Shown here piece by piece: positions 11,381 through 45,100 of a stretch of DNA of 64,000 nucleotides. Position numbers and translations under genes: made by a program. The notes under the pieces were generated by a model. The model made no database searches, had not been told where the DNA came from, and saw nothing but the letters and a program-made list of their open reading frames with translations. Each line of letters opens with the position of its first letter. The first letter of the stretch is position 1. This DNA is from an uncultured bacterium (GTDB lineage: Bacteria; Cyanobacteriota; Vampirovibrionia; Gastranaerophilales; Gastranaerophilaceae): positions 1 through 64,000 of the forward strand of contig CASDOW010000006.1 in assembly GCA_949282195.1 (NCBI GenBank), in the 5' to 3' direction.

Positions 11381-12079
11381 TTATACGGATACAAGACCTT
11401 CTTTAATTGCCTTTACGGCTGCTTGGACTCTATCATCCACGCATAATTTTTGCAAAATTGAACAAACGTGTGCTTTTGCTGTATGCACTGAAACAATTAA
11501 TTCTTGGGCAATTTCTGTGTTAGATTTCCCTTGAACCAAAAGTTTTAAAACTTCACTTTCTCTTTCTGTTAATTTTGCTTTTATGTCCATGGAATGACCT
11601 GAATTTAAAATTTCTGTGTTTTCAGGTTTCGGGAATAATTTAAGTGCTAAATGTGCAACATTTGAATCTATCCAACACGCACCTTTTGCCACGTTTTTAA
11701 TCACGTTTGATAATGTGTTTGGGTCAATATCTTTCAGGCAATATGCGCTTGCGCCTGAACCTAAAGAAGCAACAACTTCTTCTTCTCTATCGTGAGAGGT
11801 CAAAATAATTACTTTTGTATTTGGGGAAATTTCTTTTACTTTGCTTGTTGCTTCAAGTCCGTTAATCCCCGGTAGACCTAAATCCATAAGTACAACATCG
11901 GGTTGTTCTTTTTTAATTATTTCTAAGCCTGTTTCGGCGTTTTGTGCTTCTGCTATAACATTAATGTTTTCAATTTCATTAAGAGCGTACCTTAAACCTA
12001 CTCTTGTTAGCTTGTAATCTTCAACAATAATTACTCTTACATCCTTTGTTTGAGCTGATTTAACAGTTTGTTGAACCAT
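11381..12079 (-). CDS. NarL/FixJ-type response regulator
   Basis: 232 residues. The receiver domain (about 14-130) has the acidic pair E20-D21, phosphoacceptor D66 in VVLMDLGLPGINGLE, and the T/K switch residues (ILTSHD, CLKDI). The C-terminal LuxR-type helix-turn-helix (about 168-230, LTERESEVLKLLVQGKSNTE) would bind DNA. No histidine kinase is adjacent, so it is an orphan. It has a good ribosome binding site (GGAAGGA) and its own terminator, indicating a monocistronic unit. Confidence 0.92.
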   Translation of the reverse strand: MVQQTVKSAQTKDVRVIIVEDYKLTRVGLRYALNEIENINVIAEAQNAETGLEIIKKEQPDVVLMDLGLPGINGLEATSKVKEISPNTKVIILTSHDREEEVVASLGSGASAYCLKDIDPNTLSNVIKNVAKGACWIDSNVAHLALKLFPKPENTEILNSGHSMDIKAKLTERESEVLKLLVQGKSNTEIAQELIVSVHTAKAHVCSILQKLCVDDRVQAAVKAIKEGLVSV

Positions 12080-12207
12080 AGTTAATAATCCTTCCTCTTT
12101 TGTATCGTTATATATTGCCTATGGATTAATACTAATTGATTGAGCCTAAATAACCAATTAGCCCACTGTCTAATTTAATATTGTCCTCTTTGGCAATAAA
12201 AAGCCTT

Positions 12208-12489
12208 TTAAGCAGCTCCAACAGAGGTTTCGTTTTCTTCTTTTTCTTTTAATTGTTTTTGTTTTATTAATTTTCTTTTATAAATAACGCTGCTTAAAAG
12301 ATTATAAGCATTTTCGTTATTTATGCAGTTAATGTGTATGGCATCATCGGTTAGTTCAATATCTATTGATTTTGTTTCAACAAAATCTGATTTAAAGCCT
12401 GTTATCTGTATTATTCTGTTTTTCAGAATAGACAAGGGTAAGGCAATAAATTCTTCAAATGAATCTAAGATTTTATTTTTGCTTTTCAT
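12208..12489 (-). CDS. small hypothetical protein
   Basis: 93 residues, beginning MKSKNKILDSFEEFIALPLS, with a central beta-rich part (IDIELTDDAIHINCINN) and a charged C-terminal tail. No family is recognised. A TATAAT on the minus strand (12498-12503) ends eight bases before the ATG and no ribosome binding site is present. It stands between the orphan response regulator and the divergent spermidine synthase gene. Confidence 0.6.
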   Translation of the reverse strand: MKSKNKILDSFEEFIALPLSILKNRIIQITGFKSDFVETKSIDIELTDDAIHINCINNENAYNLLSSVIYKRKLIKQKQLKEKEENETSVGAA

Positions 12490-15145: not shown

Positions 15146-16597
15146 CTATATTTTGCCCAAAACATTCAATTTGTAGTCAGGGGCCACTTCTTCAAAGCAT
15201 ATAGTCGGGATATCCATAAATAATTGTGAAACAAGAATGAAGATAACCTGTCTGTATTGTTGCGGTGCAATTAAAACAGCATTTTGGTTGATTAAATCAT
15301 CCTTTGTTTCTTTGAGGATTTTTTTGAATTTTGTAAATTTGGATAGGTCTATTTTAACGCTTGATTCTTCATTATTTGTTTGTTTTTCTAATAATTCCAA
15401 TGTGTCATTATCTACTTCATAGGCAAAAATTTCTTTATCTTTATTAGATACGCTTTGAGAAATCTGCCTTGAAAGTGCCATTCTTAATTTGTCCAATAAA
15501 TCCGCTTTATTTGGATCATCAGAAAAATCGTTTAATTTTTCAAAAATATAAACAATATCTTTAATGCTTACTTTTTCTCTGATTAATTGACTTAAGAGAT
15601 ATTTAAGCTCCGAAATACTGATATAATCACCTAAAATTGTATCAGTAAGGAATGAATTTTGGTTGCTTACAAATTCGACGTACCTGTTTAAATCATTGTA
15701 ATCAAAGATTTCATCAACATGTGCAATAGAATAATAGCTTAAATATCCTGCTATATATTCGGCAGGCTCAATTCCTTCTACCCAAAAATTTTCGCATTGA
15801 CTTTTTTCAATCCAGACTATTTTTCTTTTGGTTAGAGGGTCTTTAGCTTTATAAGAATTTTTTGGAAGCTTGTCTATATTTAGTTCATCTTCAAAAAATG
15901 CAAGATGATTAGGATAAGCTTTTGAGTTTATAACGCTAACTCCATGGATATTGATTGAAAAATCATAAGCATCTAAAGATGTATTTTCGATAAATTGTAC
16001 TTTTGGGATAATATAACCTAGTTCATGGGTTAATTCTTGTCTTACTTTAACGGTTTGAGATAAAAGATTTTTTTCGGTTTTTAAGTCGCAAAGAGAATAG
16101 TTTTCGCTTGACAGGCTGATTGAAAGTTTTTCTTCGCCTAAGAATTTAACCATTTTAGACGGCGCCAAGATGTCTTTTAAATCTTTTTTTAAGTTGTTTA
16201 ACTCATCAATATCTTTTTTGATTTCATCGTTTAAAATTTCTCTTTCTTCGTCTTTTGATGTTTCAAGAAATTTTTTGACACGTTCGATTTTGTCTTTTTT
16301 ATCTCTGATTTTCTTTTGCAAATTTAGGCAAAGTTCATAGGGCTCTTCTTTAGAATATAACATTTTTTCAACAGAATTTCTGAAGCTGATAATGTCGTCA
16401 TTTCCTTCTGTTTCTTGATTTTCAATTTCTTTTACAAAGATACAGTTGTAAACTATTTTTGAATTTTGCTCCGCTTCATAAATAGAATATAATTCCCAGC
16501 CTGATACAGACATTGCATTAAGCGTGTTTTCAAGCATTAGAGCGTCTTCTGTCGGAATTTGTTTAATGGAATATTCTTGTCTAAATTGTTTCATCAT
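15146..16597 (-). CDS. soluble FlhA C-terminal-domain protein with DUF4177-like N-terminus
   Basis: 483 residues without any transmembrane segment. Residues about 5-60 (EDALMLENTLNAMSVSGWEL, then IVYNCIFVKE) resemble DUF4177. About 75-145 is a charged coiled coil. About 185-430 parallels the cytoplasmic domain of the FlhA encoded at 31352: VRQELTHELGYIIPKVQF against VRQRVTDDLGYIIPNIRI, then LSQLIREKVSIKDIVYIFEK against FVNLIREKVSIKDVIFIFER, then LRMALSRQIS against LRAALGRQIC. In flagella this domain docks export chaperones and substrates. The whole FHIPEP membrane part is absent. It lies 10 kb from flhA, among unknowns. Two adjacent ATGs, neither with a Shine-Dalgarno; an extended -10-like TGT-TAAACT ends six bases upstream. 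Confidence 0.85.
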   Translation of the reverse strand: MMKQFRQEYSIKQIPTEDALMLENTLNAMSVSGWELYSIYEAEQNSKIVYNCIFVKEIENQETEGNDDIISFRNSVEKMLYSKEEPYELCLNLQKKIRDKKDKIERVKKFLETSKDEEREILNDEIKKDIDELNNLKKDLKDILAPSKMVKFLGEEKLSISLSSENYSLCDLKTEKNLLSQTVKVRQELTHELGYIIPKVQFIENTSLDAYDFSINIHGVSVINSKAYPNHLAFFEDELNIDKLPKNSYKAKDPLTKRKIVWIEKSQCENFWVEGIEPAEYIAGYLSYYSIAHVDEIFDYNDLNRYVEFVSNQNSFLTDTILGDYISISELKYLLSQLIREKVSIKDIVYIFEKLNDFSDDPNKADLLDKLRMALSRQISQSVSNKDKEIFAYEVDNDTLELLEKQTNNEESSVKIDLSKFTKFKKILKETKDDLINQNAVLIAPQQYRQVIFILVSQLFMDIPTICFEEVAPDYKLNVLGKI

Positions 16598-26820: not shown

Positions 26821-27483
26821 ATGTTTAGTCCGCAATTGCAAAATTACATAAATTCTTCTTCTCAAGCTCAAGCGTTTAATCGCGTTAATGAGCTAAATCG
26901 TTATATAAATTCAATTTATCCTCAGCAACAACAAGAAATTAATAAAACTTCTGCCTTTGATGAGATTTTGGCGGAATCAAAAAAAGAAGTTGAATCAAAC
27001 AGTGTTTTTGAACTTGATACTCCTCCCATGGTTAAAGAAGATATTAAAACTCTTCCTTTTGGCTCCTTGAGCAGATTAAAAGGAGCGGAAGAAAAAGTAT
27101 CAAACACTAAAGCTGCAATTTTAGGTTATATCAAAGACGCAAGTGAAAAATATAATGTAGATGAAAAATTAATTAAAGCTTTAATAAAACAAGAATCAAA
27201 TTTTAATCCCAATGCTGTTTCATCGGTTGGCGCAAAGGGTTTAATGCAGTTAATGCCTCAAACTGCTAAGGCTTTAGGAGTTGTTAATTCTTTTAACCCT
27301 AAAGAAAATATCGAAGGCGGAGTTAAATATTTAAAACAAATGCTTGATAAATATAATGGAAATAAAATATTGGCTCTTGCCGCATATAACGCTGGCCCCG
27401 GAGCTGTTGATAAATATAACGGTATTCCTCCTTATAAAGAAACGCAAAATTATGTTAAATCTGTATTAGCTAATTACCTATAA
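26821..27483 (+). CDS. lytic transglycosylase (SLT domain)
   Basis: 220 residues. The C-terminal SLT domain (about 105-220) has catalytic E125 in [14 protein letters not shown], then [20 protein letters not shown] and [14 protein letters not shown]. The N-terminal 100 residues are low-complexity, and no signal peptide is visible. Because it is first in a flagellar gene cluster, it may open peptidoglycan for the basal body and be exported by the flagellar apparatus. A ribosome binding site AAGG precedes the ATG; fliE follows by 11 bp. Confidence 0.85.
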
Positions 27484-27494
27484 AGGATAAGAAA

Positions 27495-27803
27495 ATGGAT
27501 AAAATAAATCAAATAAATTTTTTTAGAACAAATCGCATGGAGCCATTGGAAGCAAATATTTCAATAAGCTCTGACGATACCAATGTGAAAAGTTTTAAAA
27601 ACGTTGTGGCTGATATGATGCAAGAATTAAACGAAGTTACAAATAAACCGCAACAACTAACACAAGACGCTATGCTTGGAAAAGCTGATGTCCATGATGT
27701 TATGGCGGCAATTGCCCAAAGTGAGATTACGGTTCAAGCGGCAACCACAATAACAGGTAAAATCCTACAAACATATGAGAAAATAATGCAAATACAGATT
27801 TAG
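27495..27803 (+). CDS. fliE: flagellar hook-basal body protein FliE
   Basis: 102 residues. The C-terminal helices (DAMLGKADVHDVMAAIAQSE, then TVQAATTITGKILQTYEKIM) carry the FliE pattern of a V/MHDVMIA motif and the ending YQEIMRMQI-like. FliE joins the MS ring to the rod and is the first rod substrate exported. AAAGGA lies seven bases before the ATG. The position just before fliF supports it. Confidence 0.88.
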   Translation: MDKINQINFFRTNRMEPLEANISISSDDTNVKSFKNVVADMMQELNEVTNKPQQLTQDAMLGKADVHDVMAAIAQSEITVQAATTITGKILQTYEKIMQIQI

Positions 27804-27828
27804 TCTTAACTTTAGCAGATTATGATAG

Positions 27829-27834
27829 TATAAT
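27829..27834 (+). promoter_or_regulatory. -10-like element before fliF
   Basis: TATAAT, 17 bases before the fliF ATG. There is no Shine-Dalgarno in the gap, so fliF may have its own start with a very short leader, in addition to readthrough from fliE. Confidence 0.35.
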
Positions 27835-27851
27835 TTAATTAATAGAACAAT

Positions 27852-29564
27852 ATGGAAAAATTTGACCTAAAAAAATTAACTGAAAATAAGCCTTTTTTAT
27901 ACGCTATAGTGGTTGCTATAGTGGTTGTTTTAGTAATGTTTATTATTATGATATCCGTTATGGTTAGTGTTGGTTCTAAGGGCAATCAAGCGCAAGAAAA
28001 TCAGATAAAACAGGCTGAAAAAGTTATCAAAAATGATCCTGTAACTCTTTTTACAACGGAAAATACGGGAAAGGCTCTTGAAGTTCAAGCGCTGTTAGCA
28101 CGCGAGCAAATTGTAGCCACAAAAGTTGATAACGGGTCAAAAGTAAGTATCGTATTAAAAGAATATACTCAAGACCAAAGAGATAGGGCGCTTTTAGCTA
28201 TTGTTAAAAGCGGGCTCTTAGATGAGCATACAGGCTTAGAAATATTTGATAAGGGCGATTTTACTTCTACTAAAGACGATAAAAAAATTAAACTCATAAG
28301 AGCAATTAATGGCGAATTAGCTCGTTTGATAAGGAAAATTCCGCCTATTGAAAATGCGCAGGTATTTATTTCTATTCCTGAACAAACTTTCTTTTCTCAA
28401 GATCAAAAACCGACGACAGCAACCGTTCAAATTACTATGCCATCAGGCGAAAGACTTGATAATATGAAAGTAAAAGCAATTTCTAATTTGCTTTTAGGAG
28501 CGGTTCATGGGCTTCAAGCCGATAATATTTCAATAACGGATACGAACGGAACTGTTTATAATTCAATAATTGGCGCTTCTGATGATGCTATTGCAAAATT
28601 AGAAGAAAACGATAAATACATGCAATCAAAAGTAAACGCTCAATTAGATAAACTTATAGGCAAGGGTAATTATATAGCAACTGTTTCAACATTTTTAACT
28701 CAAGCTCCCGTTGAAAAAACAAGCATATTATATGATCCTGATCAAAAAACTTCTGTCTCAGAACAGCAATTCAGTGAAAATTTAGGTGATAATCATAACG
28801 ATTCAACTACATCCGGCATGAATCCTGTTAGTGTTTATGTTCCTGACGGCGTGAAAGGGGCAGTGCAATCAGGTTCATCAAGCCAAGATAGACAATATTC
28901 ACGCTCTGCTGTTGAAACTCAATACGGTGTATCTAAAACTCAAGTCAGCGAATTTACTCAAGCCGGAACTATTGAAGAAATAACGGTTGCCGTTTCAATT
29001 GAAGAAAATTCAATTCCTACAAATATGAGTTTGTATGAATTAAAAACTTTAATTGCCCATGCTGCAAGTCCTAAAGTAGACCCTGAAAATGTATCTATTG
29101 CTTTTGTTGAGTCTAATAGTCTTGTTTTGGCTCCTGAGAAAGAAAACGAACTTCCAAAAGTTGAAGAGTCAGGTAATCCTTGGTGGGTTGTGGGCGCAAT
29201 TCTTTCAATAGGGCTTATTTTGGGGCTTGGTCATATTGGTAAAAAAGTTAAAGATGAAGCAAGAAAACAAGAAGAAGAACTTGAATATTTAAGACAAATA
29301 GCGGCAAATCAAGAACAACAATTAAAAGATGTAACTCAGCAAGCTTCAAATTTAATTGCTCAACAAGAACAAATGGCACAAAGTTTTATTGAACAAAAAA
29401 ATCAATATGCACTTGCCCTAGAACAGGCAAAATCAGCTGCGGCTGCCACAAAAGCACCAAGACATAATCTGTCTGAGGCTATTGATGAATTAGAGTCTGA
29501 TTTTAATTCTATGGATGAAAATGAAGCAATAGAAAAAATAAAAAACTGGATTGAAAATGCTTAA
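27852..29564 (+). CDS. fliF: flagellar MS-ring protein FliF
   Basis: 570 residues, standard length. TM1 is about 15-38. The ring-building RBM1/RBM2 domains follow (NDPVTLFTTENTGKALEVQA; AINGELARLIRKIPPIENAQ; VFISIPEQTFFSQDQ), then RBM3 and a beta-collar, TM2 at about 445-465 (WWVVGAILSIGLILGLGHI), and a cytoplasmic tail of coiled coil plus acidic FliG-binding-type end (DELESDFNSMDENEAIEKIK). It forms the membrane ring of the flagellar motor and houses the export gate. No Shine-Dalgarno is seen before the ATG. Confidence 0.92.
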   Translation: MEKFDLKKLTENKPFLYAIVVAIVVVLVMFIIMISVMVSVGSKGNQAQENQIKQAEKVIKNDPVTLFTTENTGKALEVQALLAREQIVATKVDNGSKVSIVLKEYTQDQRDRALLAIVKSGLLDEHTGLEIFDKGDFTSTKDDKKIKLIRAINGELARLIRKIPPIENAQVFISIPEQTFFSQDQKPTTATVQITMPSGERLDNMKVKAISNLLLGAVHGLQADNISITDTNGTVYNSIIGASDDAIAKLEENDKYMQSKVNAQLDKLIGKGNYIATVSTFLTQAPVEKTSILYDPDQKTSVSEQQFSENLGDNHNDSTTSGMNPVSVYVPDGVKGAVQSGSSSQDRQYSRSAVETQYGVSKTQVSEFTQAGTIEEITVAVSIEENSIPTNMSLYELKTLIAHAASPKVDPENVSIAFVESNSLVLAPEKENELPKVEESGNPWWVVGAILSIGLILGLGHIGKKVKDEARKQEEELEYLRQIAANQEQQLKDVTQQASNLIAQQEQMAQSFIEQKNQYALALEQAKSAAAATKAPRHNLSEAIDELESDFNSMDENEAIEKIKNWIENA

Positions 29565-29588
29565 ATCACCTGAGGATAAAAAGGAAAA

Positions 29589-30542
29589 ATGGCGGAAACA
29601 AACGTAAAAACATTTGATTATAAAGCTTTTGCCAAAGACTTGTCCGGTCAAGCCGCGCAGGTTATTCCCAAGGACATTAAAAAACCCGATAGAGATTTTA
29701 TTGTTGAAATTATCTATCGTTTTTGTGTAATGGCAGGGGACGCTTTAGTTAAGGAGGAAAATTCTAAACTATCTGCTCAAGAAGCAAGCCTTGTTACTCA
29801 ATTTATCGGTGAATGGATTTTTCATAAATCAGTTGATTTAATTAGAGCGAATATTGACCCTCAATATAGAGAAGGAATTTTGCAAAAAGTTGCTTTTACG
29901 GTTTTTGACATAGCCAAAAAGGCAGTTGAAAAGCAAATTCCCCAAGAACAGCTTATATCTTTAGTTGAAGCGCAAGTTAAAAAATCTTTCACAAAAGCAA
30001 TGGAAGATTTAAAAAATAGAGGCGTAATATCTGAAGAACTTACTAAAAATGCGCTTTCTCAATCTAATATTGACGCTATGGCGCAAGAGCAATTAAAAGA
30101 AGAAACAATGACAGATATTGCCTGCATGAGCGATGAGAAGATAATTAAGCTAGCGTCTTTGGCAATTTTGATGAGAAATTTTTCAAGTGAAAAAATGAAA
30201 AGCATATTGCAAAAGTTTAATAAGCCTGAAAGAGAAGTTTTGATTAAATATTTAAAAATGCCTGATTTGGAAGAAAAACTGGATACCAAGGCTACTATGA
30301 GGTGTTTTGAAGAAATGAAAAATGCATTGCCTGAGGCAGTTACCGTAAGTTACGATAAAGCCTATAAAAAATTGTGTAAAATTGTTAAAAATTCGGACAA
30401 AAATAAAATTTTGAATATTATAGAAAATGAAAGACCAAATGTTCAAGAATACATTTTATCTTGTTACAACAATAAAAGAAAAAAAATCCCTGCATATGTT
30501 GCAGATGTTATATCTAAATATTTAGAAGAAAATGTTTCATGA
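29589..30542 (+). CDS. unrecognised helical protein in the fliG position
   Basis: 317 residues, all helical and soluble. Gene order (fliF - this - fliH) and the size (FliG is about 330) make it the FliG candidate. However, I cannot find the FliG EHPQ motif, the MFxFEDL helix or the charged torque helix. The C-terminal half (LASLAILMRNFSSEKMKSIL; KNSDKNKILNIIENERPNVQ) is arranged as short armadillo-like helices, compatible with very divergent FliG. The N-terminal half has no counterpart known to me. It overlaps fliH by four bases (ATGA). Either a remote FliG or a replacement switch component. Confidence 0.6.
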   Translation: MAETNVKTFDYKAFAKDLSGQAAQVIPKDIKKPDRDFIVEIIYRFCVMAGDALVKEENSKLSAQEASLVTQFIGEWIFHKSVDLIRANIDPQYREGILQKVAFTVFDIAKKAVEKQIPQEQLISLVEAQVKKSFTKAMEDLKNRGVISEELTKNALSQSNIDAMAQEQLKEETMTDIACMSDEKIIKLASLAILMRNFSSEKMKSILQKFNKPEREVLIKYLKMPDLEEKLDTKATMRCFEEMKNALPEAVTVSYDKAYKKLCKIVKNSDKNKILNIIENERPNVQEYILSCYNNKRKKIPAYVADVISKYLEENVS

Positions 30543-31351
30543 TAATAAGAAAACAAAATATTCAAAATAAAAAATCTCAACAATCTTCTTCGAATAAGAT
30601 TACCAAAAAAGGTAATATTATAAAAAAAGAAGATTTACTTTCTGCTGTTGAAGAAGCTTTGGAAAATACAGAAGATATTGAGCCAAAAGCACCTCTCGAA
30701 AAGCCAAAAGCAAAAGAAGAAGTAACAGCTGAAAGTTTTGAAAAAATTGATATTTCATCAATTGAATTTAAAGAAAGAGTTGAAAGAAGACGAGGTGACA
30801 GAAGACGCGGTTATCGAAGAATTGATGAAAGGTCTTTAGTTTCAAGAGCACAGCAAGAAGCTCATTCAATTAAAGAATTAGCAGCCAGAGAAGGCTATCA
30901 AAACGGGCTGAAAAAAGCCCAAGATGAGATAGAGGCAATAAAGGCTTCTTTAAACGAGTTTTTGGCTATGAGAGATGAAATGTATGAGGAGTTTTATCCT
31001 CATATTATGGAAATAGCTATGGAAATAGCTAAAAAAATCATTAAAAAAGAAGTAGATTTATCACAAGATGTATTAAAAAATATTATTATGTCCGTTTTAG
31101 ATGAAATTCATTCTGATTGCGAAAAAGTAACAATAAAGGTAAACCCTGATGATGTCGAATTTGCTTCTGCTTCATTACCTGAAATATTGAATAGCAAAAA
31201 TATAAGTGCTAAAGTTAATGTGGCTGCTGATGAAACAATAGAAAAGGGCAGCTGTTGTGTTGTTGCAAATAACGGCGTAATAGATGCTAATTTTAAAACA
31301 CAATTGGCGGTTTTACAGAGTGCTTTTGGAATTTATAAAGGAGGGGTCTAA
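30539..31351 (+). CDS. fliH: flagellar assembly protein FliH
   Basis: 270 residues. The C-terminal FliH/YscL domain (about 145-265) has EFYPHIMEIAMEIAKKIIKK, then VTIKVNPDDVEF and DETIEKGSCCVVANNGVIDA, typical of the stator-like regulator of the FliI ATPase. The N-terminus is disordered, with an odd arginine-rich stretch at 79-98 (FKERVERRRGDRRRGYRR). It overlaps the preceding gene by four bases and abuts flhA. No fliI follows, which is the usual partner. Confidence 0.85.
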   Translation: MIIRKQNIQNKKSQQSSSNKITKKGNIIKKEDLLSAVEEALENTEDIEPKAPLEKPKAKEEVTAESFEKIDISSIEFKERVERRRGDRRRGYRRIDERSLVSRAQQEAHSIKELAAREGYQNGLKKAQDEIEAIKASLNEFLAMRDEMYEEFYPHIMEIAMEIAKKIIKKEVDLSQDVLKNIIMSVLDEIHSDCEKVTIKVNPDDVEFASASLPEILNSKNISAKVNVAADETIEKGSCCVVANNGVIDANFKTQLAVLQSAFGIYKGGV

Positions 31352-33436
31352 TTGGCAGCTCCTCAACAACAGTCTAATCCGATTTCAGAAATTGCTTTAG
31401 CCGGTTTTGTCATAGTTTTAATATTGATTTTGTTATTGGAAATGCCTAATTGGGTTATTAATTTCTCAATCAGTTTCAATATTACACTTGGAATTGTTCT
31501 GTTGATGATTTCCCTGTATGTTAATAAACCTCTTGAATTGGCGGCATTTCCTTCAATTCTTTTGATTGGTACTGTGTTTAGGCTTGTTTTATCTATTGCT
31601 TCCACCCGTTTAATTTTGGCTAAAGGTGATGCAGGACAAGTTGTTGAAGCATTTGGTCACTTTGTAACAGGCGGAAACATGGTTGTTGGCAGTGTAATCT
31701 TCTTAATTATCACTGTTGTACAGTTTATGGTAATTACAAAAGGTGCGGAACGTATCGCCGAAGTTTCAGCCAGATTTGCACTGGACGCTATGCCGGGTAA
31801 ACAGATGACAATTGACGCCGATTTTAATGCGGGGTTAATTTCTCCTGAAGAAGCGGTTAAAAGACGTGAGGATTTACAAAGAGAATCAAGCTTGTATGGT
31901 TCAATGGACGGTGCCATGAAATTCGTTAAAGGTGATACCATAGCAGGTATTATCATTACTTTAATCAACATCATAGGCGGCTTGATTATTGGTATATTGC
32001 TAAATGGTATGGCTCCTGCTGACGCTGTTTCAAAATATACTATCTTAACAATTGGTGACGGCTTGGCAGCCCAAGTTCCCTCATTGTTAATGGCTATTTC
32101 ATCAGGTATAGTTATGACTCGTGCAACAGGGGGCGGTGTTGCTTTGGGTTCTGATTTAGCTATTGAAATTTTATCAAAACCGACAAGTTTGTTTTTAGCT
32201 TCAGGTTTTTTGATTTTAATTGCCTTAACATCAGGTGTTACAGGTTTGCCTTGGTTTCCTTTTTTAGTTTTTGCGGCAATTTTAATATGCGGCGGCTTAT
32301 CTGTTTTGGTTAATCAGGATGTTCAACAGCAATTAGGGCAGTTAGACGCGGTTAAACAAAATATGCAGGATTTGGTTAATCCTAATAAGATGTATGAAAG
32401 ATTGGGCGTTGATGTTTTATCTCTGCAAGTGGGGGCAGGGCTTTTAGTTATAGCAGACCCTGAACAAGACGGTCAATTATTGGCTAAAATTGCAGCCTTA
32501 AGACAAAGAGTAACGGATGATTTAGGTTATATTATTCCAAACATAAGAATTATGGATTCATCAGCAATCGGAGATAATGAATATTTAATTTCAATTCGTG
32601 GCAATCCTGTTGCAACAGGGACTGTTTACCCCGGAAAATTAATGGTTATAGCTGATCAATATGATTCTTTGGGTAAGAAATTACCCGAAAATGCCATTGT
32701 TTCTGTGGAACCCACATTTCAATCCCAGGCTTATTGGTTAAATCCGCAGCATATAGGTAAAAATGATAAAATCCAAGCGGTTGACGCTGTGGATGTAATT
32801 GTAACGCATTTACAAGAGTGCGTTCGTAAGTATGTTGATGAAATTATGACTAAAACTGATGTTTTAAAATTAATGGAGCTTGTTAAATCTCAAGACCCGA
32901 CATTGGTTAATGACCTTGTGCCTACAATTATTTCAACATCAGATTTAAGAAAGATTTTTGTAAATCTGATTAGAGAAAAAGTTTCAATAAAAGACGTTAT
33001 CTTTATTTTTGAAAGATTGTGTGATTATGCAAGATTTTCAAAAGAACCTGATATCTTATCAGAAAGATTAAGAGCTGCATTGGGTAGACAAATTTGCTTA
33101 TCCAACGTGAATAAAGAAAAAGTTTTATATGCTTTGACTTTATCATCAGAATGGGAAAAAACACTTGATGACAGCTGCCAAAGAACTGAATTGGGTACAA
33201 TGTTTTTATTAAACCCCATGCAAGTTCAAGAGCTTATTGAATCAACTGCAAATACTCTTATGAGGGCGCAAAGTGCTGTTGGAGTGCAGCCTGTAATATT
33301 GTGTTCTCCAAGGATAAGATTGCCTTTATATCAAATGTTAGAGCGTCATATACCTACTATTGTTGTTATTTCATATTCGGAATTAATAACTGATATTAGA
33401 GTTGAAGCAATAGATACAATCGGAGAGGGTTATTAA
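31352..33436 (+). CDS. flhA: flagellar export gate protein FlhA
   Basis: 694 residues, full length. Start is TTG at 31352, chosen because AAAGGAGGGG sits ideally before it and the fliH stop directly abuts. It has about eight transmembrane helices (20-320) with the FHIPEP region FPSILLIGTVFRLVLSIAS and the cytosolic loop MPGKQMTIDADFNAGLI holding the conserved aspartate. The C-terminal cytoplasmic nonamer-ring domain (about 350-690) starts near RLGVDVLSLQVGAGLLV. It forms the proton-driven gate of flagellar type III export. The closest relative in the window is the soluble protein at 15146-16597. Confidence 0.95.
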   Translation: MAAPQQQSNPISEIALAGFVIVLILILLLEMPNWVINFSISFNITLGIVLLMISLYVNKPLELAAFPSILLIGTVFRLVLSIASTRLILAKGDAGQVVEAFGHFVTGGNMVVGSVIFLIITVVQFMVITKGAERIAEVSARFALDAMPGKQMTIDADFNAGLISPEEAVKRREDLQRESSLYGSMDGAMKFVKGDTIAGIIITLINIIGGLIIGILLNGMAPADAVSKYTILTIGDGLAAQVPSLLMAISSGIVMTRATGGGVALGSDLAIEILSKPTSLFLASGFLILIALTSGVTGLPWFPFLVFAAILICGGLSVLVNQDVQQQLGQLDAVKQNMQDLVNPNKMYERLGVDVLSLQVGAGLLVIADPEQDGQLLAKIAALRQRVTDDLGYIIPNIRIMDSSAIGDNEYLISIRGNPVATGTVYPGKLMVIADQYDSLGKKLPENAIVSVEPTFQSQAYWLNPQHIGKNDKIQAVDAVDVIVTHLQECVRKYVDEIMTKTDVLKLMELVKSQDPTLVNDLVPTIISTSDLRKIFVNLIREKVSIKDVIFIFERLCDYARFSKEPDILSERLRAALGRQICLSNVNKEKVLYALTLSSEWEKTLDDSCQRTELGTMFLLNPMQVQELIESTANTLMRAQSAVGVQPVILCSPRIRLPLYQMLERHIPTIVVISYSELITDIRVEAIDTIGEGY

Positions 33437-36627: not shown

Positions 36628-38550
36628 ATGGAAAATAAAGTATTAAATGAAAATATAGCTCATGTTGCTAAATACAATAAAGAGCTTGCTGATGAAATTT
36701 TAAGGTTTAATTGCGAAAAATCAACTCTTGAGCTTGTGAAGTTGGAAAATGGAGAGTTTAATATATTTTCTTGTAATGATTTTATCCATGATATTAACGG
36801 TGCTGAAAATGAAGCAAAGAGAGTTATTAATTCTATTAAAAATAAAGAAGAAAAAAATACAGTAAGGTTAATTTACGGTTTAGGTTTAGGCTATTTAGTC
36901 GATGAGGCGGCAAATGAATTAAAAGGTAAGATTGTCATTTATGAACCTGATTTAAATATAGTTAAAACAGTTTTAAGCTTAGCTAAAATAGACGGTTTAT
37001 TTAAAGATAATGTATTTTTATGCTGTGATAAGGATACTTTATCTGATTATATTTATTCTTTAACTGATGAAAATACTGATATATCTGTCACTTTTTTGAA
37101 TTATCATAAAAAATTCTTTTTAGATGATATTAAAGATGTTTTATATACTGCCCAAAAAGCTCAAGCTCAACATCATGGCAATAAAGAAACATTATATAAA
37201 AAAATGCCCCATGCAATTTTAAATACGTTTGCAAATTTTGAAAAAGTATTAAAAACCCCAAATGTATTAACACTAAAAGATGTTTATAAGGGCAAAACCG
37301 CACTTTGTGTTTCGGCGGGACCTTCATTGACCGAAAATATAGAGATAATTAAAAAAAATCAGGATAAATTTGTAATTTTTGCACTTAATCCTACTATTAA
37401 ACTTTTAGATAAGCATAATATTCAGCCTGATTTTATTTTGTATATTGAAACAATAAACAACCAAGCTCAATTTGATTATGATATAGTAAAAAATTCATAT
37501 TTAATATTGGAGCCTTATTGTTATAGAGGGGTTTATAATTTAAATTCAAAAGCTATATTTAACTATATTTCCGAAAATACTTTTTTAAATCCTTGGGTTT
37601 TGGATTGTTTAAAAATTCAATCAAACCTTCAAACGGTTGGCACTGTCTCATACATGGCTTTAATTAGTGCTTTTATTATGGGGTTTGATGAAATTATTTT
37701 AATAGGACAGGATTTAGCCTATAAAGACGGAAATTGTTATGCTAAGGGAAGCCATTATGAAAATTTAAAATGTGTATTTAACAAAGAGCTTAATAAATAT
37801 GTGATTGAGCCTGATAATTATGAAGAATTTGAAAAAGCCGCAATGGTATCTGTAAGTAATAATAAAAATACAAAATTAAATGCGAAAAAATATTTAGAAT
37901 TTTTAAATAATAATATTGCAACAATTAAAGCTCAAGACGGATCTTTGCTTCCTACGCAGACAGGGTATGCTATTTTTGTTGATATATTTAAAAAAACTGC
38001 AAAAGAATTAAAGAGATTAAAGCCTTCGTTAAGGCTTATTAATTCTTCTTTTGGCGGTGCTCAAATAGATAATTTTGAAAACATTAAGCTTGATGAATTA
38101 ATTGAACATTTAAAACCCATAGAAAAGAAAAATTTAAATATTGCATTACCTGATTTAGATAAAAATCATATTAAAAATAGAGTTATACAAATGAAAGATA
38201 ATCTTATAAAGTTAAAAGATTACTTTGTTCAATTCCAAGAAACAGCTAAAGGTCTTTGTGATGAATTAAATAAAAAGCTCGAATTTAGTGAAAATATATT
38301 AAATTTATTAAGAAAACAGAATGACATTTTTAAAAAAGTTCAATTTTTGCCAAAAGAAAAATATTTTGATGTTGTTATACAAAGCGTGGAAAACAGAATT
38401 GCATTTTACTATGATGAAAATTATCTCAAAACACCTGATAATTGTTTAAATGCTAATACGCATGCTCTTCTTTATATAGGCGGAATGATTAAAATAATTG
38501 ATGCAAGTATTAAAAAATTAGCAGATTGTGAGCTTGTCGTCTTGCAATAG
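36628..38550 (+). CDS. DUF115/Maf-type (motility-associated glycosyltransferase-like) protein
   Basis: 640 residues from the ATG; an upstream TTG at 36622 is less likely. The central DUF115 (MAF_flag10) domain (about 215-420) is marked by GKTALCVSAGPSLTENIEII, the DFILYIET pattern, GTVSYMALISAFIMGFDEII and IGQDLAYKDGN. Maf proteins attach nonulosonic acids to flagellin; related DUF115 proteins act on pterins. Long helical C-terminal region. Upstream is divergent; the 3' end overlaps the tandem-CheW gene by 33 bp. No flagellin is in the window, so the acceptor is unknown. Confidence 0.78.
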   Translation: MENKVLNENIAHVAKYNKELADEILRFNCEKSTLELVKLENGEFNIFSCNDFIHDINGAENEAKRVINSIKNKEEKNTVRLIYGLGLGYLVDEAANELKGKIVIYEPDLNIVKTVLSLAKIDGLFKDNVFLCCDKDTLSDYIYSLTDENTDISVTFLNYHKKFFLDDIKDVLYTAQKAQAQHHGNKETLYKKMPHAILNTFANFEKVLKTPNVLTLKDVYKGKTALCVSAGPSLTENIEIIKKNQDKFVIFALNPTIKLLDKHNIQPDFILYIETINNQAQFDYDIVKNSYLILEPYCYRGVYNLNSKAIFNYISENTFLNPWVLDCLKIQSNLQTVGTVSYMALISAFIMGFDEIILIGQDLAYKDGNCYAKGSHYENLKCVFNKELNKYVIEPDNYEEFEKAAMVSVSNNKNTKLNAKKYLEFLNNNIATIKAQDGSLLPTQTGYAIFVDIFKKTAKELKRLKPSLRLINSSFGGAQIDNFENIKLDELIEHLKPIEKKNLNIALPDLDKNHIKNRVIQMKDNLIKLKDYFVQFQETAKGLCDELNKKLEFSENILNLLRKQNDIFKKVQFLPKEKYFDVVIQSVENRIAFYYDENYLKTPDNCLNANTHALLYIGGMIKIIDASIKKLADCELVVLQ

Positions 38551-39558
38551 TTTATCAACATCTAAAACTTGATAAATTTCTCCGTCTTTTACAAATTCAA
38601 GGGTGTTTGTTTCTTCTTGTTTTTGCAGTTTGTTTTGAATAATCTCTTCAAAGTTTATGTTTAAACTTTCGCAAATTTCGTCAGCCAAAATTCCAAGCTT
38701 AAATTCATTTGAGTTTAAAATAATAATTGTTGATTTTTCTTTTATGTGGGTTTTTGGGTTGTTGAAAAATCTTCTTATATCAAGAACGGTTATATATTCA
38801 CCTTTTATATTTGCAAGCCCGTATATGAAATCAGGAGTTGAGGGAACTTTTATGAATTTTGTATTGTTTACTTTGAAAAATTCCTTTACGCTCGCCATGT
38901 TGATGTAATATTTTACATCATTGATTGAAAAAGATACCCCCATGTCATATAGAGGAGTGTTTATTTGTACATCTTGGGTAATTTTAGTTAGAAAATTTTT
39001 TCTTTCGTTGAGTGTTTTTTTAGAAATTTCATCATCTATAATGAATTTTTGGGTGGTGCTTTCGTTTTTGTATTTATCGGGATTATTTTGGATATATTGT
39101 TCGAGTGCGTCTATATCTAAAATGTAAAAATCTTCATCATTTTCTATAAAAGCACCTTTGTAGAGGCTGTCTTTTGTTGTGTAGGGAATGTTTTTTATTT
39201 TTGTAAGACTGATTTTTTTAACATCCTTAACATTGTCGCAAATAAGAGCAGTTGTAGAGTTTTGTGTTTTTATAACAAGAACTTTAGCATTTAGATTGTA
39301 AACTATTCTTTCATTTTTCAATACTTCTCTTAAATCAATAACGGCGATTGGAGATTGTTCGTATTCCATAATCCCTAAAATGCAGGACGGAAGAGCATAA
39401 GGATAGTCTAATTCCATTATTTTGACTATTTCAAGCACTTTCTTTGTTTCAATGGCGTAGACTTTCTTGTCTATTTCAATAAGAGTGTATATTTCGTTTT
39501 TTTCTTCTTTAACTTCTTGAAGAAGGCTGTTTGGCTGAAGTGTTAAGCTATTTTCCAT
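38518..39558 (-). CDS. tandem CheW-domain protein
   Basis: 346 residues holding two CheW-like domains: about 20-155 (EIYTLIEIDKKVYAIETKKV; LPSCILGIMEYEQSPIAVID) and about 205-340 (VSFSINDVKYYINMASVKEF; PDFIYGLANIKGEYITVLDI). CheW links receptors with CheA. A two-domain form may bridge two receptors or two kinases. The start lies inside the end of the REC gene (11-bp overlap). It is transcribed away from the mcp-cheA pair. Confidence 0.82.
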   Translation of the reverse strand: MENSLTLQPNSLLQEVKEEKNEIYTLIEIDKKVYAIETKKVLEIVKIMELDYPYALPSCILGIMEYEQSPIAVIDLREVLKNERIVYNLNAKVLVIKTQNSTTALICDNVKDVKKISLTKIKNIPYTTKDSLYKGAFIENDEDFYILDIDALEQYIQNNPDKYKNESTTQKFIIDDEISKKTLNERKNFLTKITQDVQINTPLYDMGVSFSINDVKYYINMASVKEFFKVNNTKFIKVPSTPDFIYGLANIKGEYITVLDIRRFFNNPKTHIKEKSTIIILNSNEFKLGILADEICESLNINFEEIIQNKLQKQEETNTLEFVKDGEIYQVLDVDKLLQDDKLTIC

Positions 39559-40981
39559 TATTTTTTATTACCACCTTTTCATTGAGTGCTTCACTGTATG
39601 CTTTTTGTGCAATTTTTTGAGCTTCATAGATATTGTAATTTTCTTCAATCATGCAGTTAACTGCTGTGATAATTGCTTCAATGCCATAATTTTGATAAGT
39701 TATTTTATTTAAAAGTTCATATAGCGAATTAAGTCTGTTTTTTAGCTCTTTTTCGTCTTTTGTGAAGATAATTATTGCATATTCATCATCATAATTTTTA
39801 TGAATTTGTTCATTTTTATTTATGGTTTTTATGATTTTTTCAGAAATCTTTGAATTAAATATATCTAATTCTTGGGTTGAAAGATTGTCTTTAAGATATT
39901 GAAAATTAACTATATCAATAATTACAAGATATATAAAAGCATGTTGTATAAGGGCATTTTCAATTTTATTGAATAAGTTTAATTCTGTTTTGTTTAGAGA
40001 GTATTTTTTCTGTGAATCTCCTTTAGAGGATGAAAATTTGTATATATATCTGGCTTTGAAGAATTTTTCCAAAGTGTTTTTTATTTTTGAAATGGTTTGT
40101 TCATCTTGCCATTTTTCATTTTCAAATGAATAAAAAGCAATATTGGCAGTTTTTTTATTTAAATTTTCGAAATTAAATTCTATTTTTGAAGCAAATTCAT
40201 TTATGTCAAAAACTGTTCTTAAATTGGGGGCATAAGTTTTAAACATGGTATTATTTTTTGCTTTATATGTATGCAGGATGTTGTTTTGAAAAATAGGGCT
40301 TAAAATAATATCTCTAACATCTAAATATACTTTTTCTTCCTTTTTTTCAAATGAATAAACAGAAATTAAACCTAAGTCATATTTTAATAAAGGATGTAAA
40401 ATTTGAAATAAATTTTCTAATATTTCTTCATCATCCAATGTAAAGTCGTAAAGTTTTCTAAAATCTTGCGTTAATTTATTTTCATCAATTAATGAGATTT
40501 CGTCTTCAAAATTTTCTTCGTCTTCCTCAATCGGCTTATATTCATTAGGAATGATTTGGGTTTGTATAAGCGATTTTTCCAAGATTTGTTGTTTATATTT
40601 TTCATCAACCGGATGTTCATTGATTGCTTTTTGAGCTAATTCAACAAGAGAATTTACATTATCGCTTTTTGTTAAGAAATATTCATTTATATCGTCTTGC
40701 AGATAGTATCTGGCATGTTTGGCGTCAAGAATACTGTATATTATAACAGGAATTTTTGAGATAACGGGGTTTTCTTTTATTGATTTAACTAATTGAAAAC
40801 CTCCGACAAGAGGCATTATTGCGTCTGTTATAACTAAATCGGGAGCTATATCAAAAATCATTTCATAGCCGATTTTGGCACTTTTGGCACTGTAAACTTC
40901 CCAATCGTTTTTTGTCATAATGGTTTTCAAAAGATTTAATTGGGTTGTGCTATCATCTATTATGATTACTTTTTTTGTCAT
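39548..40981 (-). CDS. response regulator with degenerate GGDEF-like domain
   Basis: 477 residues. The receiver (about 1-125) is intact: IIIDDSTTQLNLLKT, phosphoacceptor D53 in LVITDAIMPLVGGFQLVK. About 170-310 could be GAF-like. About 340-475 is GGDEF-like, but the signature reads YDDEYAIIIF, so cyclase activity is doubtful. It shares a 65-bp divergent promoter region with mcp-cheA, so it is probably an output or adaptor of that chemotaxis pathway. No Shine-Dalgarno is seen. Confidence 0.8.
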   Translation of the reverse strand: MTKKVIIIDDSTTQLNLLKTIMTKNDWEVYSAKSAKIGYEMIFDIAPDLVITDAIMPLVGGFQLVKSIKENPVISKIPVIIYSILDAKHARYYLQDDINEYFLTKSDNVNSLVELAQKAINEHPVDEKYKQQILEKSLIQTQIIPNEYKPIEEDEENFEDEISLIDENKLTQDFRKLYDFTLDDEEILENLFQILHPLLKYDLGLISVYSFEKKEEKVYLDVRDIILSPIFQNNILHTYKAKNNTMFKTYAPNLRTVFDINEFASKIEFNFENLNKKTANIAFYSFENEKWQDEQTISKIKNTLEKFFKARYIYKFSSSKGDSQKKYSLNKTELNLFNKIENALIQHAFIYLVIIDIVNFQYLKDNLSTQELDIFNSKISEKIIKTINKNEQIHKNYDDEYAIIIFTKDEKELKNRLNSLYELLNKITYQNYGIEAIITAVNCMIEENYNIYEAQKIAQKAYSEALNEKVVIKNNGK

Positions 40982-41046
40982 AACTTAACTTATTGTTTAT
41001 AATTATTTATAATAAGATTATACATTTTTTTATATAAAGGTGAAAT

Positions 41047-42102
41047 ATGTCAAAAGAAGTAAATAATTCAAACCGAAAAGTAAATATAGCAAGAGAGCTA
41101 ACCAGAAAACAGATATTTGACTGTGCAATGATATTTATTGCGTTTGGTGTTAATTTTTATTTTGTAAAGATATTGGGGTATGTGAGTTATGATTTAATAA
41201 CTGTGTCAACAATAAGTTTAATTATATTGTTTTTTGCTTTTGAATACAGTAAAAACGCGGTTCAAACTCCTTTGAATAATTTAGTAATTGACGCATTGGA
41301 TGAAACATTGTCGTCTGTTAATTCAATTCAAGATAAAAATAATTTTCAAAAAGAAAATAATATAACATCTAACGATAGAATTAAAAGCGTTAAAGATTTA
41401 ATGATTAATCTTAAAAAATATTCCGATGAAATGGCGGAATTGACAGATAAAACAAGAGAAAAAACCGATCAATCAATTAGTTTTACAAATAATGAATATA
41501 GTGCGGTTAAAGCAAATATTGAAAAAATGTTTTCAATAAGACATAAAATTCAAACAATTGCAGAATTAATCTTGGAATTGTCTGATTTTGTTCAATCAAT
41601 TTCATCTACAATTGGTCTTGTTGAAGATATAGCAGAGCAAACAAATTTATTGGCGCTAAATGCGGCGGTAGAAGCAGCTCGTGCGGGTGAGCATGGTAAG
41701 GGTTTTGCTGTTGTTGCTTCTGAAATCAGAAAATTAGCCGATGAATCAAAACAAGCTACAACAAAAATCATTTCTTTAATTAATGATATTCAGCAAACTG
41801 CAAATTCAACAGTTTTAGCAACTGAAGAAGGTACAAAAGAAATTGAATCCGGTTTAGAATTAGCTCATACTATTAGTGAAAATATTGAACAGCTGATTAG
41901 TGCTATGAATGAAATTTCAAAAAATATGAATGAAATAATTATTTCGTCTTCTCAAATAAGCAATGATTCAAGAACGACAGACGGATTTATTGAAGAAATT
42001 TCTCAATATGTTGAACAAAGCCAAAAAATTACAAACGAAAACGAAGAAATGGTTTCAAAAATACAATCAACATCAAATAATTTAAAACAACAGGTTTTAT
42101 AA
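41047..42102 (+). CDS. methyl-accepting chemotaxis protein without a periplasmic domain
   Basis: 351 residues. Two close transmembrane helices (about 24-42 and 52-70) are separated by only a few residues, so there is no external sensor. The signalling hairpin is canonical: [40 protein letters not shown]. The protein must sense inside the cell or the membrane, or act as a signalling hub. AAAGGTG before the ATG. Followed by cheA after 28 bp. Confidence 0.92.
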
Positions 42103-42130
42103 AAAAAATTCTTCTTATGGGTAGAAAGAG

Positions 42131-45100
42131 ATGGAGTTTCAAAAAGAGGAATTAGATGAAATATTAAATATTTTTCAGCAGGAATCTACTGAAATAATTT
42201 CTTCTATGGATGGTAAGCTCTTAATGCTTGAAAAGGGCGGTTTTAATTATGATATCGCAATTCAACTATTCAGAGATGCCCATTCCTTAAAGGGCTCTGC
42301 GCGTATGCTTGGTTTTGAAGATATTCAAAATATTGCCCATAAAATTGAAGATGTAATCAGTTTGATTAAAGAAAATAAATTAAAAGTACAATCATCTGTA
42401 ACTGATGTGATTTCTGAGTGTTTGGAATTTATTTCGGATTTAATTAATAAAACAACTGCGCAGAAAACAGAATATAAAAGCCCTGATATTGGAAGATATA
42501 TAGAAAAACTTGAAAATATTGAAAAAATATCTCAAGATGAAGATTTAAGTATAGTTGCAAATGAAGATAGCCCCTCTAAAAAAGAGCTTTTAGAAAAATT
42601 GGGCGGGCTTGAAAATGATATTGTAGAAATTTTATATACGGTTTCTTTGGCAAGAGCGCAAAAGAATTTTGATGAAATAATTAAAATTGAAAGAACAGTT
42701 AATGATTTTATAACTCTGTTAAATAATTCCGGTGATAATTTAAGTTCAATTATAAATTTAGCGCAAAATATTTTAAATTCATTAGACAGATATAAAAATT
42801 CTGATAATAAAGAACTTTCTTTTATGGATGTAAATTCTTCTGTCATGGGATTAATTGAGGAATTTTCAACTTTATTGGATAAGGAAAATGTTAAAAGAAA
42901 GTCTTATTATGATATTGTAGATGAAAAATTAAATCAGCAAGAACCAATAAAAGAGCAAAAGCCTAAAGAAAAACAAGAAGAGAAAATTGAGCCGAAGCTT
43001 GAGGCAAAAGCCCCTCAGGTGGTTGAACTTAAAGGTGAAAAATTAAATGAATTTATTCAAAAAATTCCATTGTTGGAAATAAATGTTGAATTTATTCCCG
43101 ATACTGTTGAAATTGTTGATGAGTTAATTTCAAAAGAAAAAAATAATATTGTTTCTTCAATTTATAAAAATATAAAAGAAACAATGGAAGTTTTTAAAGA
43201 TAAAAATATACCCTTAACGCATGACGTTATATTGGGTTTTAAAGAAATTTCAGAAAATTTAAAAGAGGGCAATAACAGTACCTTAACAGAAATTTTGACA
43301 AAATCTGATGTGATTAAGACCATGGTTAAATTCCAGTATAAAAATCACAATAATAAAACAAAAAATCAACACGAATTATCTCAAAAAGATATTTTAAACA
43401 CCATTACTAATACCGAAATTAAAACCTTAAGGGTTGATTCAATAAAGCTTGATAATTTAGTGGGGCAAATTGGCGAACTTATTGTTTCAAAAATTAAGAC
43501 AAATGAACAGCTTTCGTTGGCAAAAAAAATCAATAATGATTTAATTGAATGGCAAAAAAACTTTATTAAAATGGGCTATTATATTAAATATTTTGATAAA
43601 AAATATTTGTCAAACCCAATTGGCGAAGATGTATACGATTTTAGAAAAATAATTGCTTATAATAAACAATTGTGCGCTTTATCCGAGCAGCATAATGAAA
43701 AAATTACTCTTTTAATAAAAGAAATGTCTTATCTTTTTAGGCAAATTCAAGAAAGCGAGACAAAGCTAAATTCTACCACAAATGAAATAGAAGCAATGGT
43801 AAAGAATATGAGAATTTTGCCTTTGTCTACAATTTTTCAATTATTCCCGAGAATGGTTCATAATATTGCAAGAGATAAAAACAAAAAGATAGATTTAATT
43901 ATCGAAGGGGCAGATATTACAGCCGATAAAACAATCATTGAAGAAATTAAAATTCCTCTTATGCATATAATAAGAAATTCAATTGACCATGGGATAGAAG
44001 AGGTTGAAACAAGAAAAACATTGGGCAAAAACCCCGTAGGCAGAATTGAAATTAATGCAAGTTATAAAGATAACAAGGTTGTAATTGATGTAAAAGACGA
44101 CGGCAGAGGCTTAAACATTGAAAAAATTAAAGAGAAAGCCCTTGAAAAAAAGCTATTAACGATTGAAGAGTTAAATGCAATTTCAGATGAGGAATTGACG
44201 AATTTAATATTCTACCCGGGATTTTCAACAGAAGATTTTGTAACCGAACTATCAGGGCGAGGATTGGGGCTTGATATTGTAAATAATAAAATTAGTCAAT
44301 TGCAGGGCAGAGTGGATATTTTTTCGCAAGTTAACAAAGGTACTGTTGTAAGAATTATTCTTCCTGCGACTGTTGCAACGAAAAAGGTATTTATAATTGA
44401 AGAACAAGGGCAATTATATGCAATTGAAACATCTGTTATAAGGACAATTACAAGAGTAAACGCAGATGAAGTTTTTGAAAAAGATAATAATAATTATTTT
44501 ATTTATAACGGTTCAGCTATTGTAATTTATACGCTATCACAAATTTTGGGACTTGAAAATAGACCCAGAGAAACGGTTAAATGTACATTAATGATAATAG
44601 AAACAGAAAATGCAATCTTTGGAGTTATTGTTGAAAAATTAATCTCTGATCAAGAAATTGTACACAAAAAACTTGCAGCTCCATTATATAAAGTAAAACA
44701 TATTTCAGGAATTACAACTCTGGCTAACGGCGAGGCTTGTTTAATTTTAAATATTAGCGATATTATAACAACAATCAGCTCTAAAAAGATAAGAAGCAGA
44801 ATTGTAGTTAAAAATGAAATCGCAAGAGTACAGGATAATTTTAAATATAAAGTTCTTGTGGTTGATGATTCAAGAACAACAAGAATGTTGCAAAAAAATA
44901 TTTTATCAAATCAGGGCTATAATGTTTCTACGGCAACAAACCCTATAAATGCTTTAGATAAAACAAAACAAGTAAAATATGATTTAGTTATTTCAGATAT
45001 TCAAATGCCTGAAATGAATGGTTTTGAATTTATAAAAGAGTTAAGGAAAAATCAAAACTATGAAAAAACCCCTGTTATTGTTGTAAGTTCTGAACCAAAA

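What the first reader, a model, noticed from the sequence alone, without database searches (positions are those of the whole stretch)
15146..16597. FlhA cytoplasmic domain as a separate soluble protein with DUF4177-like head
The protein keeps most of the FlhA C-domain (LIREKVSIKDIVYIFEK, LGYIIPK, ALSRQIS) but has none of the membrane gate. It carries a DUF4177-like N-terminus and a coiled coil. In normal flagella this domain forms the nine-member docking ring for chaperone-substrate complexes. A free copy could be a decoy, a second docking ring, or a cytosolic chaperone for special cargo. The true FlhA is present too.
Basis: partly seen in the sequence, partly recalled or inferred. Interest (0 to 1): 0.75.

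Follow-up and report, generated by a model that had tools for sequence, protein, structure and literature searches.

The report
Membrane-free twin of FlhA's docking domain
Gastranaerophilales bacteria, non-photosynthetic relatives of cyanobacteria, carry a separate protein built from the inner docking domain of the export protein FlhA, without FlhA's membrane part and with a new head; it likely helps sort cargo for a flagellum-like export machine whose genes they keep even when no flagellin gene is found.

Summary
Window 15146-16597 (-) encodes 483 aa: a DUF4177-like head, a predicted helical hairpin and a complete FlhA cytoplasmic domain (FHIPEP 153.8 bits, profile 321-656) with no membrane gate. 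It is not a stray fragment: it occurs in 150 of 154 Gastranaerophilales genomes that I scored, evolves under purifying selection (dN/dS 0.03-0.07 in five close pairs) and forms one clade. Its sister is not flagellar FlhA but the FlhA of a second, order-wide export system (the FlhA at window 31352-33436). FliP is in 240 of 241 order genomes, flagellin in only 97. The protein keeps the ring-stabilising linker motif, has lost the chaperone-dimple residues (Phe at the Phe459 position: 0 of 74) and the GYXLI switch glycine (0 of 74), and has invariant residues of its own. In two genomes of one family it is followed by FliJ, FliK, FlgD and FlgE. Best reading: an accessory cytosolic subunit of that second system's export gate, likely ring-associated, with re-tooled recognition. 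Partners and function are inferred; a decoy role or loss of any export role stays open. I found no account of it in the papers searched.

The parts
15146..16597 (-). Stand-alone FlhA cytoplasmic-domain protein, 483 aa
   Evidence: ORF; FHIPEP 153.8 bits; order-wide orthologues
16421..16597 (-). DUF4177-like head, residues 1-59 (predicted beta-alpha-beta-beta); N27, W34, F54 invariant in 74 of 74
16346..16420 (-). low-confidence spacer, residues 60-84
   Evidence: pLDDT under 50 over 60-84
16163..16345 (-). predicted helical hairpin, residues 85-145; its end (121-145) aligns with the linker of the second-system FlhA
16130..16162 (-). linker motif, residues 146-156 (P146 in 74 of 74, M149 in 69 of 74), the segment that stabilises FlhA rings
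   Evidence: role from PMC8213127 and PMC8166844 (passages)
15905..16129 (-). FlhA domain D1, first part, residues 157-231; GYXLI glycine replaced by Ser (72 of 74) or Asn
   Evidence: domain borders mapped by me from recalled Salmonella borders
15767..15904 (-). FlhA domain D2, residues 232-277; Phe459 and Leu461 positions changed; D253, W262, W272 invariant in 74 of 74
15707..15766 (-). FlhA domain D1, second part, residues 278-297; Thr490 position changed (Thr in 1 of 74)
15464..15706 (-). FlhA domain D3, residues 298-378, the best-kept part (37% mean identity to the second-system FlhA)
15149..15463 (-). FlhA domain D4, residues 379-483, the least conserved part
31352..33436 (+). full-length FlhA of the second export system, the closest paralogue in this genome
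26821..31351 (+). second-system genes beside it: SLT transglycosylase, FliE, FliF, a 317-aa protein of no Pfam family, FliH

Best explanation
[quoted passage not shown] Shown: the domain make-up of the sequence, one origin from the second-system FlhA lineage, order-wide retention under purifying selection, changed residues at the chaperone dimple and the GYXLI glycine, a kept linker motif, and a gene order with FliJ-FliK-FlgD-FlgE in two genomes. Inferred: that linker and D3 still pack against FlhA cytoplasmic domains to form a mixed or stacked ring; that the rebuilt D1-D2 cleft (D253, W262, W272) binds a partner other than the flagellar chaperones; that the DUF4177-like head adds recognition or self-assembly. 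Untested: every physical interaction.
For: Sister to second-system FlhA (support 99/95; 100/95 without the five long free copies), and grouping with flagellar FlhA rejected, p-AU 1.4e-9 (four second-system FlhAs in the tree). 28% identity and 150 bits to the window's second-system FlhA including its linker, against 20% and 64 bits to flagellar FlhA. Present in 130 of 131 order genomes with a match and 21 of 22 genomes of families f2-f7. dN/dS 0.032-0.068 for five close pairs, a sixth saturated. P146 74 of 74 and M149 69 of 74; Phe at the Phe459 position 0 of 74, Gly at the Gly368 position 0 of 74; D253, W262, W272, Y300 74 of 74. W272 has no counterpart in second-system FlhA and Y300 is Lys there. 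In G007 and G013 the next genes on the same strand are FliJ, FliK, FlgD, FlgE (Pfam run on G007), and in G007 the second cluster lies about 13 kb away. FliP 240 of 241, flagellin 97 of 241.
Against: In 11 of 18 sampled loci (17 of them of family f1) the genes before it are BamA and OmpH, often with a nucleoside phosphorylase, not export genes; in the window it stands alone between genes of the other strand. Control that weakens the domain argument: second-system against flagellar FlhA shows the same contrast, D3 34%, D1 35-37%, D2 18%, so a well-kept D3 and poor D2 are general; only the poor D4 (19% against 33%) is peculiar here. The linker proline also occurs in second-system, f8 and other FlhAs. 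The dimple was already changed in the second-system FlhA (Phe459 position F or Y, Leu461 position S or T; Thr490 and His491 kept) and in f8 (L, E, A). It diverges 6.6-8.6 times faster than the second-system FlhA. G135 (98% complete) has FlhA, FliP and FliI but not this protein, and the five f8 genomes have FlhA without it. No complex was modelled or measured.
Confidence: 0.37

Rival explanations
1. Decoy or brake: the soluble domain binds FliJ, FliH or cargo in the cytosol, or enters the FlhA ring as a dead subunit, and so holds export back until a signal sensed by the head releases it.
For: Lacks the membrane part; lost the GYXLI glycine that in Salmonella is needed for open-close motion (PMC9431611 passages); kept the ring linker motif, so it could poison a ring.
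Against: A decoy for flagellar chaperone complexes should keep the chaperone dimple; it is changed. Near-universal retention says that the protein is needed, not which way it acts.
Confidence: 0.26
2. Exapted scaffold with no export role: after the duplication the domain took a cytosolic job, perhaps with RNA or another ligand through the DUF4177-like head.
For: Housekeeping neighbours in 11 of 18 sampled loci; fast divergence; the head resembles, weakly and below significance, KCTD5 and the RraB-like VC0424 (the name RraB is recalled, and PF06877 RraB matched 3 of 24 relatives, best E 0.007); B. subtilis YjzH, a DUF4177 protein, is listed in an RNA-binding proteome (PMC12456014, one passage).
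Against: Each genome scored that holds it also has FliP or a full-length FlhA; linker motif kept; FliJ-FliK-FlgD-FlgE beside it in two genomes.
Confidence: 0.24
3. Flagellar accessory: it serves the true flagellum, for instance in the switch from hook to filament export.
For: Beside FliJ-FliK-FlgD-FlgE in G007 and G013, both with flagellin; a flagellin gene lies about 4 kb away in G006 (L087) and 2.6 kb away in G004 (L124).
Against: Kept in 93 of 94 flagellin-less genomes scored; derived from the second-system FlhA lineage, not the flagellar one.
Confidence: 0.08
4. Decaying remnant of a duplicated FlhA.
For: Truncated relative to FlhA; fast divergence.
Against: Open frame in 150 of 154 genomes scored, dN/dS 0.03-0.07, and its own invariant residues.
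Confidence: 0.01

Closest known systems
FlhA, cytoplasmic domain (flagellar export gate; PDB 6CH1, 3A5I, 7AMY)
   Different: Own gene, no membrane part; DUF4177-like head and predicted helical hairpin instead; chaperone-dimple residues and GYXLI glycine changed
FlhA of the Gastranaerophilales second export system (window 31352-33436)
   Same: Sister group in the tree; 28% identity including the linker
   Different: Full-length membrane gate, evolving 6.6-8.6 times more slowly; keeps the GYXLI glycine, Thr490 and His491
SctV/YscV/CdsV (injectisome export gate)
   Different: More distant in sequence (HrcV 91.6 bits against FlhA 145.7)
Other free or partial FlhA cytoplasmic domains found here in other classes of the phylum (L135, L136, L137, L139)
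   Same: FlhA cytoplasmic domain without the full gate
   Different: Other heads (HTH_17 in L135; by eye an N-terminal membrane stretch in L136); placed outside the second-system group in the tree, on long branches whose place is unsure; taken as separate events (inference)
FlhX, a separate copy of the FlhB C-domain in some bacteria (recalled; the search listed no paper holding the name among its 8 rows)
   Same: A cytoplasmic domain of an export-gate protein as its own gene
   Different: FlhB, not FlhA; no DUF4177 head

Membership tests
FlhA / SctV (FHIPEP) export gate | N-terminal membrane domain (Pfam positions 1 to about 320) | tested here: not met
   match covers 321-656 only; no membrane-like stretch
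FlhA / SctV (FHIPEP) export gate | four-domain cytoplasmic fold | tested here: met
FlhA / SctV (FHIPEP) export gate | NCBIfam FlhA equivalog cut-off (772.1 bits) | tested here: not met
   145.7 bits
FlhA / SctV (FHIPEP) export gate | flagellar chaperone dimple Asp456, Phe459, Leu461, Thr490 | tested here: not met
   only the Asp456 position is kept (D 74 of 74); Phe459 0 of 74, Leu461 0 of 74, Thr490 1 of 74 (register, numbering inferred by spacing)
FlhA / SctV (FHIPEP) export gate | ring-stabilising linker segment | tested here: met
   P146 74 of 74, M149 69 of 74, as P and M in second-system FlhA; that it binds a neighbour was not tested
FlhA / SctV (FHIPEP) export gate | nonameric ring | not testable with these tools
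   no multimer prediction or coordinates at hand
DUF4177 (PF13783) | match of the head to the family profile | tested here: inconclusive
   14 of 24 relatives at E <= 1, best 3.2e-4, window copy none
Paralogue of the second-system FlhA | groups with it rather than with flagellar FlhA | tested here: met

The most novel reading that the evidence does not exclude
The order Gastranaerophilales runs a second, flagellin-free rod/hook export machine with a two-component gate: the membrane FlhA ring and a membrane-free twin ring or mixed-ring subunit whose remodelled cleft and DUF4177-like head recognise a private class of cargo. Elsewhere in the same phylum free FlhA docking domains were made independently with other heads, one of them DNA-binding, so the FlhA docking domain is a portable module.
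Probability: 0.28. Interest if true: 0.85.

Novelty: new variant of a known kind. Interest (0 to 1): 0.68.

Why it matters
FlhA/SctV is known as one polypeptide that joins a membrane gate to a nine-member docking ring. A conserved, separate docking domain would show that gate and docking can be split, and it offers a natural reagent to ask which surfaces of the ring do what: this lineage changed the chaperone dimple and the switch glycine but kept the linker motif. It also draws attention to an export system kept in nearly every Gastranaerophilales genome examined, most of which lack flagellin, which earlier work read as incomplete flagella (PMC4040986, passages).

Full report

Where it comes from. 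The genome is a Gastranaerophilales bacterium: the closest records are named so (the window copy is 92-93% identical to four of them). It holds three FHIPEP genes: flagellar FlhA on C5 (866 bits), a second full-length FlhA in this window at 31352-33436 (719 bits) and the stand-alone protein (154 bits). BLAST puts the stand-alone protein nearest to the second FlhA: 28% identity and 150 bits, including the linker, against 20% and 64 bits to the flagellar one. In an IQ-TREE analysis of 60 cytoplasmic domains all 34 stand-alone copies of the order form one clade (100/100), sister (99/95) to the four second-system FlhAs sampled from the order; the single FlhA of class-level relatives (f8, four sampled) lies outside both, and the flagellar FlhAs lie far away. 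With five long free copies removed, support is 100/95; a clade of stand-alone plus flagellar FlhA is rejected (p-AU 1.4e-9); a clade with f8, or a place outside second-system plus f8 FlhA, is rejected mildly (0.022, 0.031). So one duplication in the second system's FlhA lineage gave rise to it, at or before the origin of the order.

The second system. In the window the second FlhA follows SLT transglycosylase, FliE, FliF, a 317-aa protein of no Pfam family, and FliH. Elsewhere in the genome lie FliP on C13 with FliO, FliQ, FliR and a protein with two FliMN_C stretches, a second FlhB on C11 and a second FliI on C27. In G006 the cluster also holds FlgB, FlgC and two FlgF/G-like proteins (Pfam run on FlgB, FlgC and one FlgF/G); G007 has relatives of all of these by BLAST and G012 the same run by eye. 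Over 241 order genomes FHIPEP is in 241, FliP in 240 (the exception G063 has a full FlhA), a rod-protein match in 237, flagellin in 97 and flagellar-type FlhA (817 bits or more) in 92 (counted). FliI over the cut-off was found in 15 of 15 sampled genomes, 13 of the order and 2 of f8. So 144 of 241 genomes have no flagellin match, while the export apparatus persists. Earlier papers reported incomplete flagellar gene sets in such genomes (PMC3787301 and PMC4040986, passages); a 'MEL-COG list' in PMC3787301, which I take to be shared genes, names two flhA genes, one of which may be the stand-alone gene (inference).

How general. In one search (292 genomes of the phylum) 131 order genomes had a match, and 130 hold the stand-alone protein (E 1.7e-84 or better); the exception is G135. 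The 120 unlisted genomes without a match could in principle include order members, though every order genome has a FHIPEP gene that should match. In families f2-f7, 21 of 22 genomes hold it (G028, 83% complete, does not); G224 and G230 of family f1, picked for having a single FHIPEP match, do not. In all, 150 of 154 genomes scored. Of the 94 flagellin-less genomes scored, 93 hold it. G122, G219 and G239 show it without a full-length FlhA but have FliP. The protein database gives 502 relatives of the window copy (E <= 0.001, candidates capped; the 120 listed carry FHIPEP as only domain). Five class-level f8 genomes have FlhA but no stand-alone copy.

Constraint. Five close pairs give dN/dS 0.032-0.068; a sixth had saturated dS. 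Across the order the protein changes 6.6-8.6 times faster than the second FlhA over the same six species pairs. Within the family, D3 (50%) and the head (48%) are the best-kept parts and D4 (28%) the worst (24 sequences). Against the second FlhA, mean identity is 37% in D3, 32-34% in D1, 22% in the linker stretch, 19% in D4, 16% in D2. As a control, second-system against flagellar FlhA gives 34% in D3, 35-37% in D1, 33% in D4, 18% in D2: the D3/D2 contrast is general and only the D4 loss is peculiar.

What was kept and lost. FlhA chaperone complexes dock in a hydrophobic cleft between D1 and D2 that holds Asp456, Phe459 and Leu461 (PMC5932034, PMC9431611, passages) and Thr490 (recalled; a T490M structure is listed). 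Mapped through the B. subtilis alignment, the Asp456 position is D in 74 of 74, but Phe459 became T or S in 73 of 74 (Phe in none), Leu461 K, R, E or N, and Thr490 mostly R, K, N, E or Q (Thr in 1). In the order-wide set of 24 the Phe459 and Thr490 positions hold no Phe and no Thr. The second FlhA has itself departed in part: F or Y at 459, S or T at 461, while Thr490 and His491 stand in 4 of 4; f8 has L, E, A. Gly368 of the GYXLI switch is Gly in all 16 full-length FlhAs compared but Ser in 72 of 74 stand-alone copies and Gly in none. Residues of its own are W272 and Y300 (74 of 74; gap and Lys in the second FlhA). The linker segment that stabilises the FlhA ring by binding the next subunit (PMC8213127, PMC8166844, passages) keeps its proline (74 of 74) and Met (69 of 74), as in the second FlhA. 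That this means ring membership is inference.

Neighbourhood. In 11 of 18 loci examined (17 of family f1, one of f6) the gene follows BamA and OmpH genes, often with a nucleoside phosphorylase, which says nothing about export. In G007 and G013 (family f7) it is followed on the same strand by FliJ, FliK, FlgD and FlgE (Pfam run on G007 only), and in G007 the second cluster begins about 13 kb further on. In the third f7 genome (G017) an opposite-strand ORF follows and the contig ends about 1.3 kb after the gene. FliJ is a known partner of the FlhA linker (PMC8166844, passages). In the window the gene lies about 10 kb from the second cluster, with other genes between.

Mechanism. I commit to an accessory, membrane-free subunit of the second system's export gate: ring-associated through linker and D3, with a rebuilt cleft and a DUF4177-like head for a partner that is not a flagellar chaperone, FliJ being the best single candidate. 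Confidence 0.37. A brake or decoy (0.26) and an unrelated cytosolic role (0.24) are not excluded.

Novelty. Free or partial FlhA cytoplasmic domains also turned up in other classes of the phylum, with other heads (HTH_17 in L135; by eye a membrane stretch in L136), placed away from the order's group in the tree on long branches. I found no paper on such proteins among the rows listed. It is a new variant of a known kind: the fold and family are known; the separate gene, the head and the changed docking site are what is new.

Noticed in passing
window 26821-33436; G000 C13, C11, C27 (L108, L109, L167): A second flagellum-like export system, kept in nearly all Gastranaerophilales genomes searched (FliP 240 of 241) although 144 of 241 have no flagellin match; no FliG match between FliF and FliH, and a FliM/N-like protein with two FliMN_C stretches.
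   Followed up: partly
window 29589-30542; L171:10872-11831 and 11843-12406: A 317-aa protein of no Pfam family sits between FliF and FliH, where the flagellar cluster of this genome has FliG (L168:11042-12064); in G007 there are two such genes side by side.
   Followed up: partly
L135:7315-8556 (-): HTH_17 DNA-binding head fused to an FlhA cytoplasmic domain in a genome of another class of the phylum: possibly a regulator that reads export cargo (guess).
   Followed up: partly
L136:6151-9077 (-), L137:6129-7910 (-), L139:1657-3114 (-): One genome (G257, 10 FHIPEP matches) holds several free or partial FlhA cytoplasmic domains with different N-termini, two of them side by side.
   Followed up: partly
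L157:3862-8087: In G012 flagellar FlhA and second-system FlhA genes lie next to each other, convergent.
   Followed up: no
L088:7261-7785: A PilZ-domain gene lies directly upstream of the stand-alone gene in G149.
   Followed up: no
window 38518-45208: A chemotaxis cluster (CheW-like protein, response regulator with a weak GGDEF match, MCP, CheA-like kinase with receiver).
   Followed up: no
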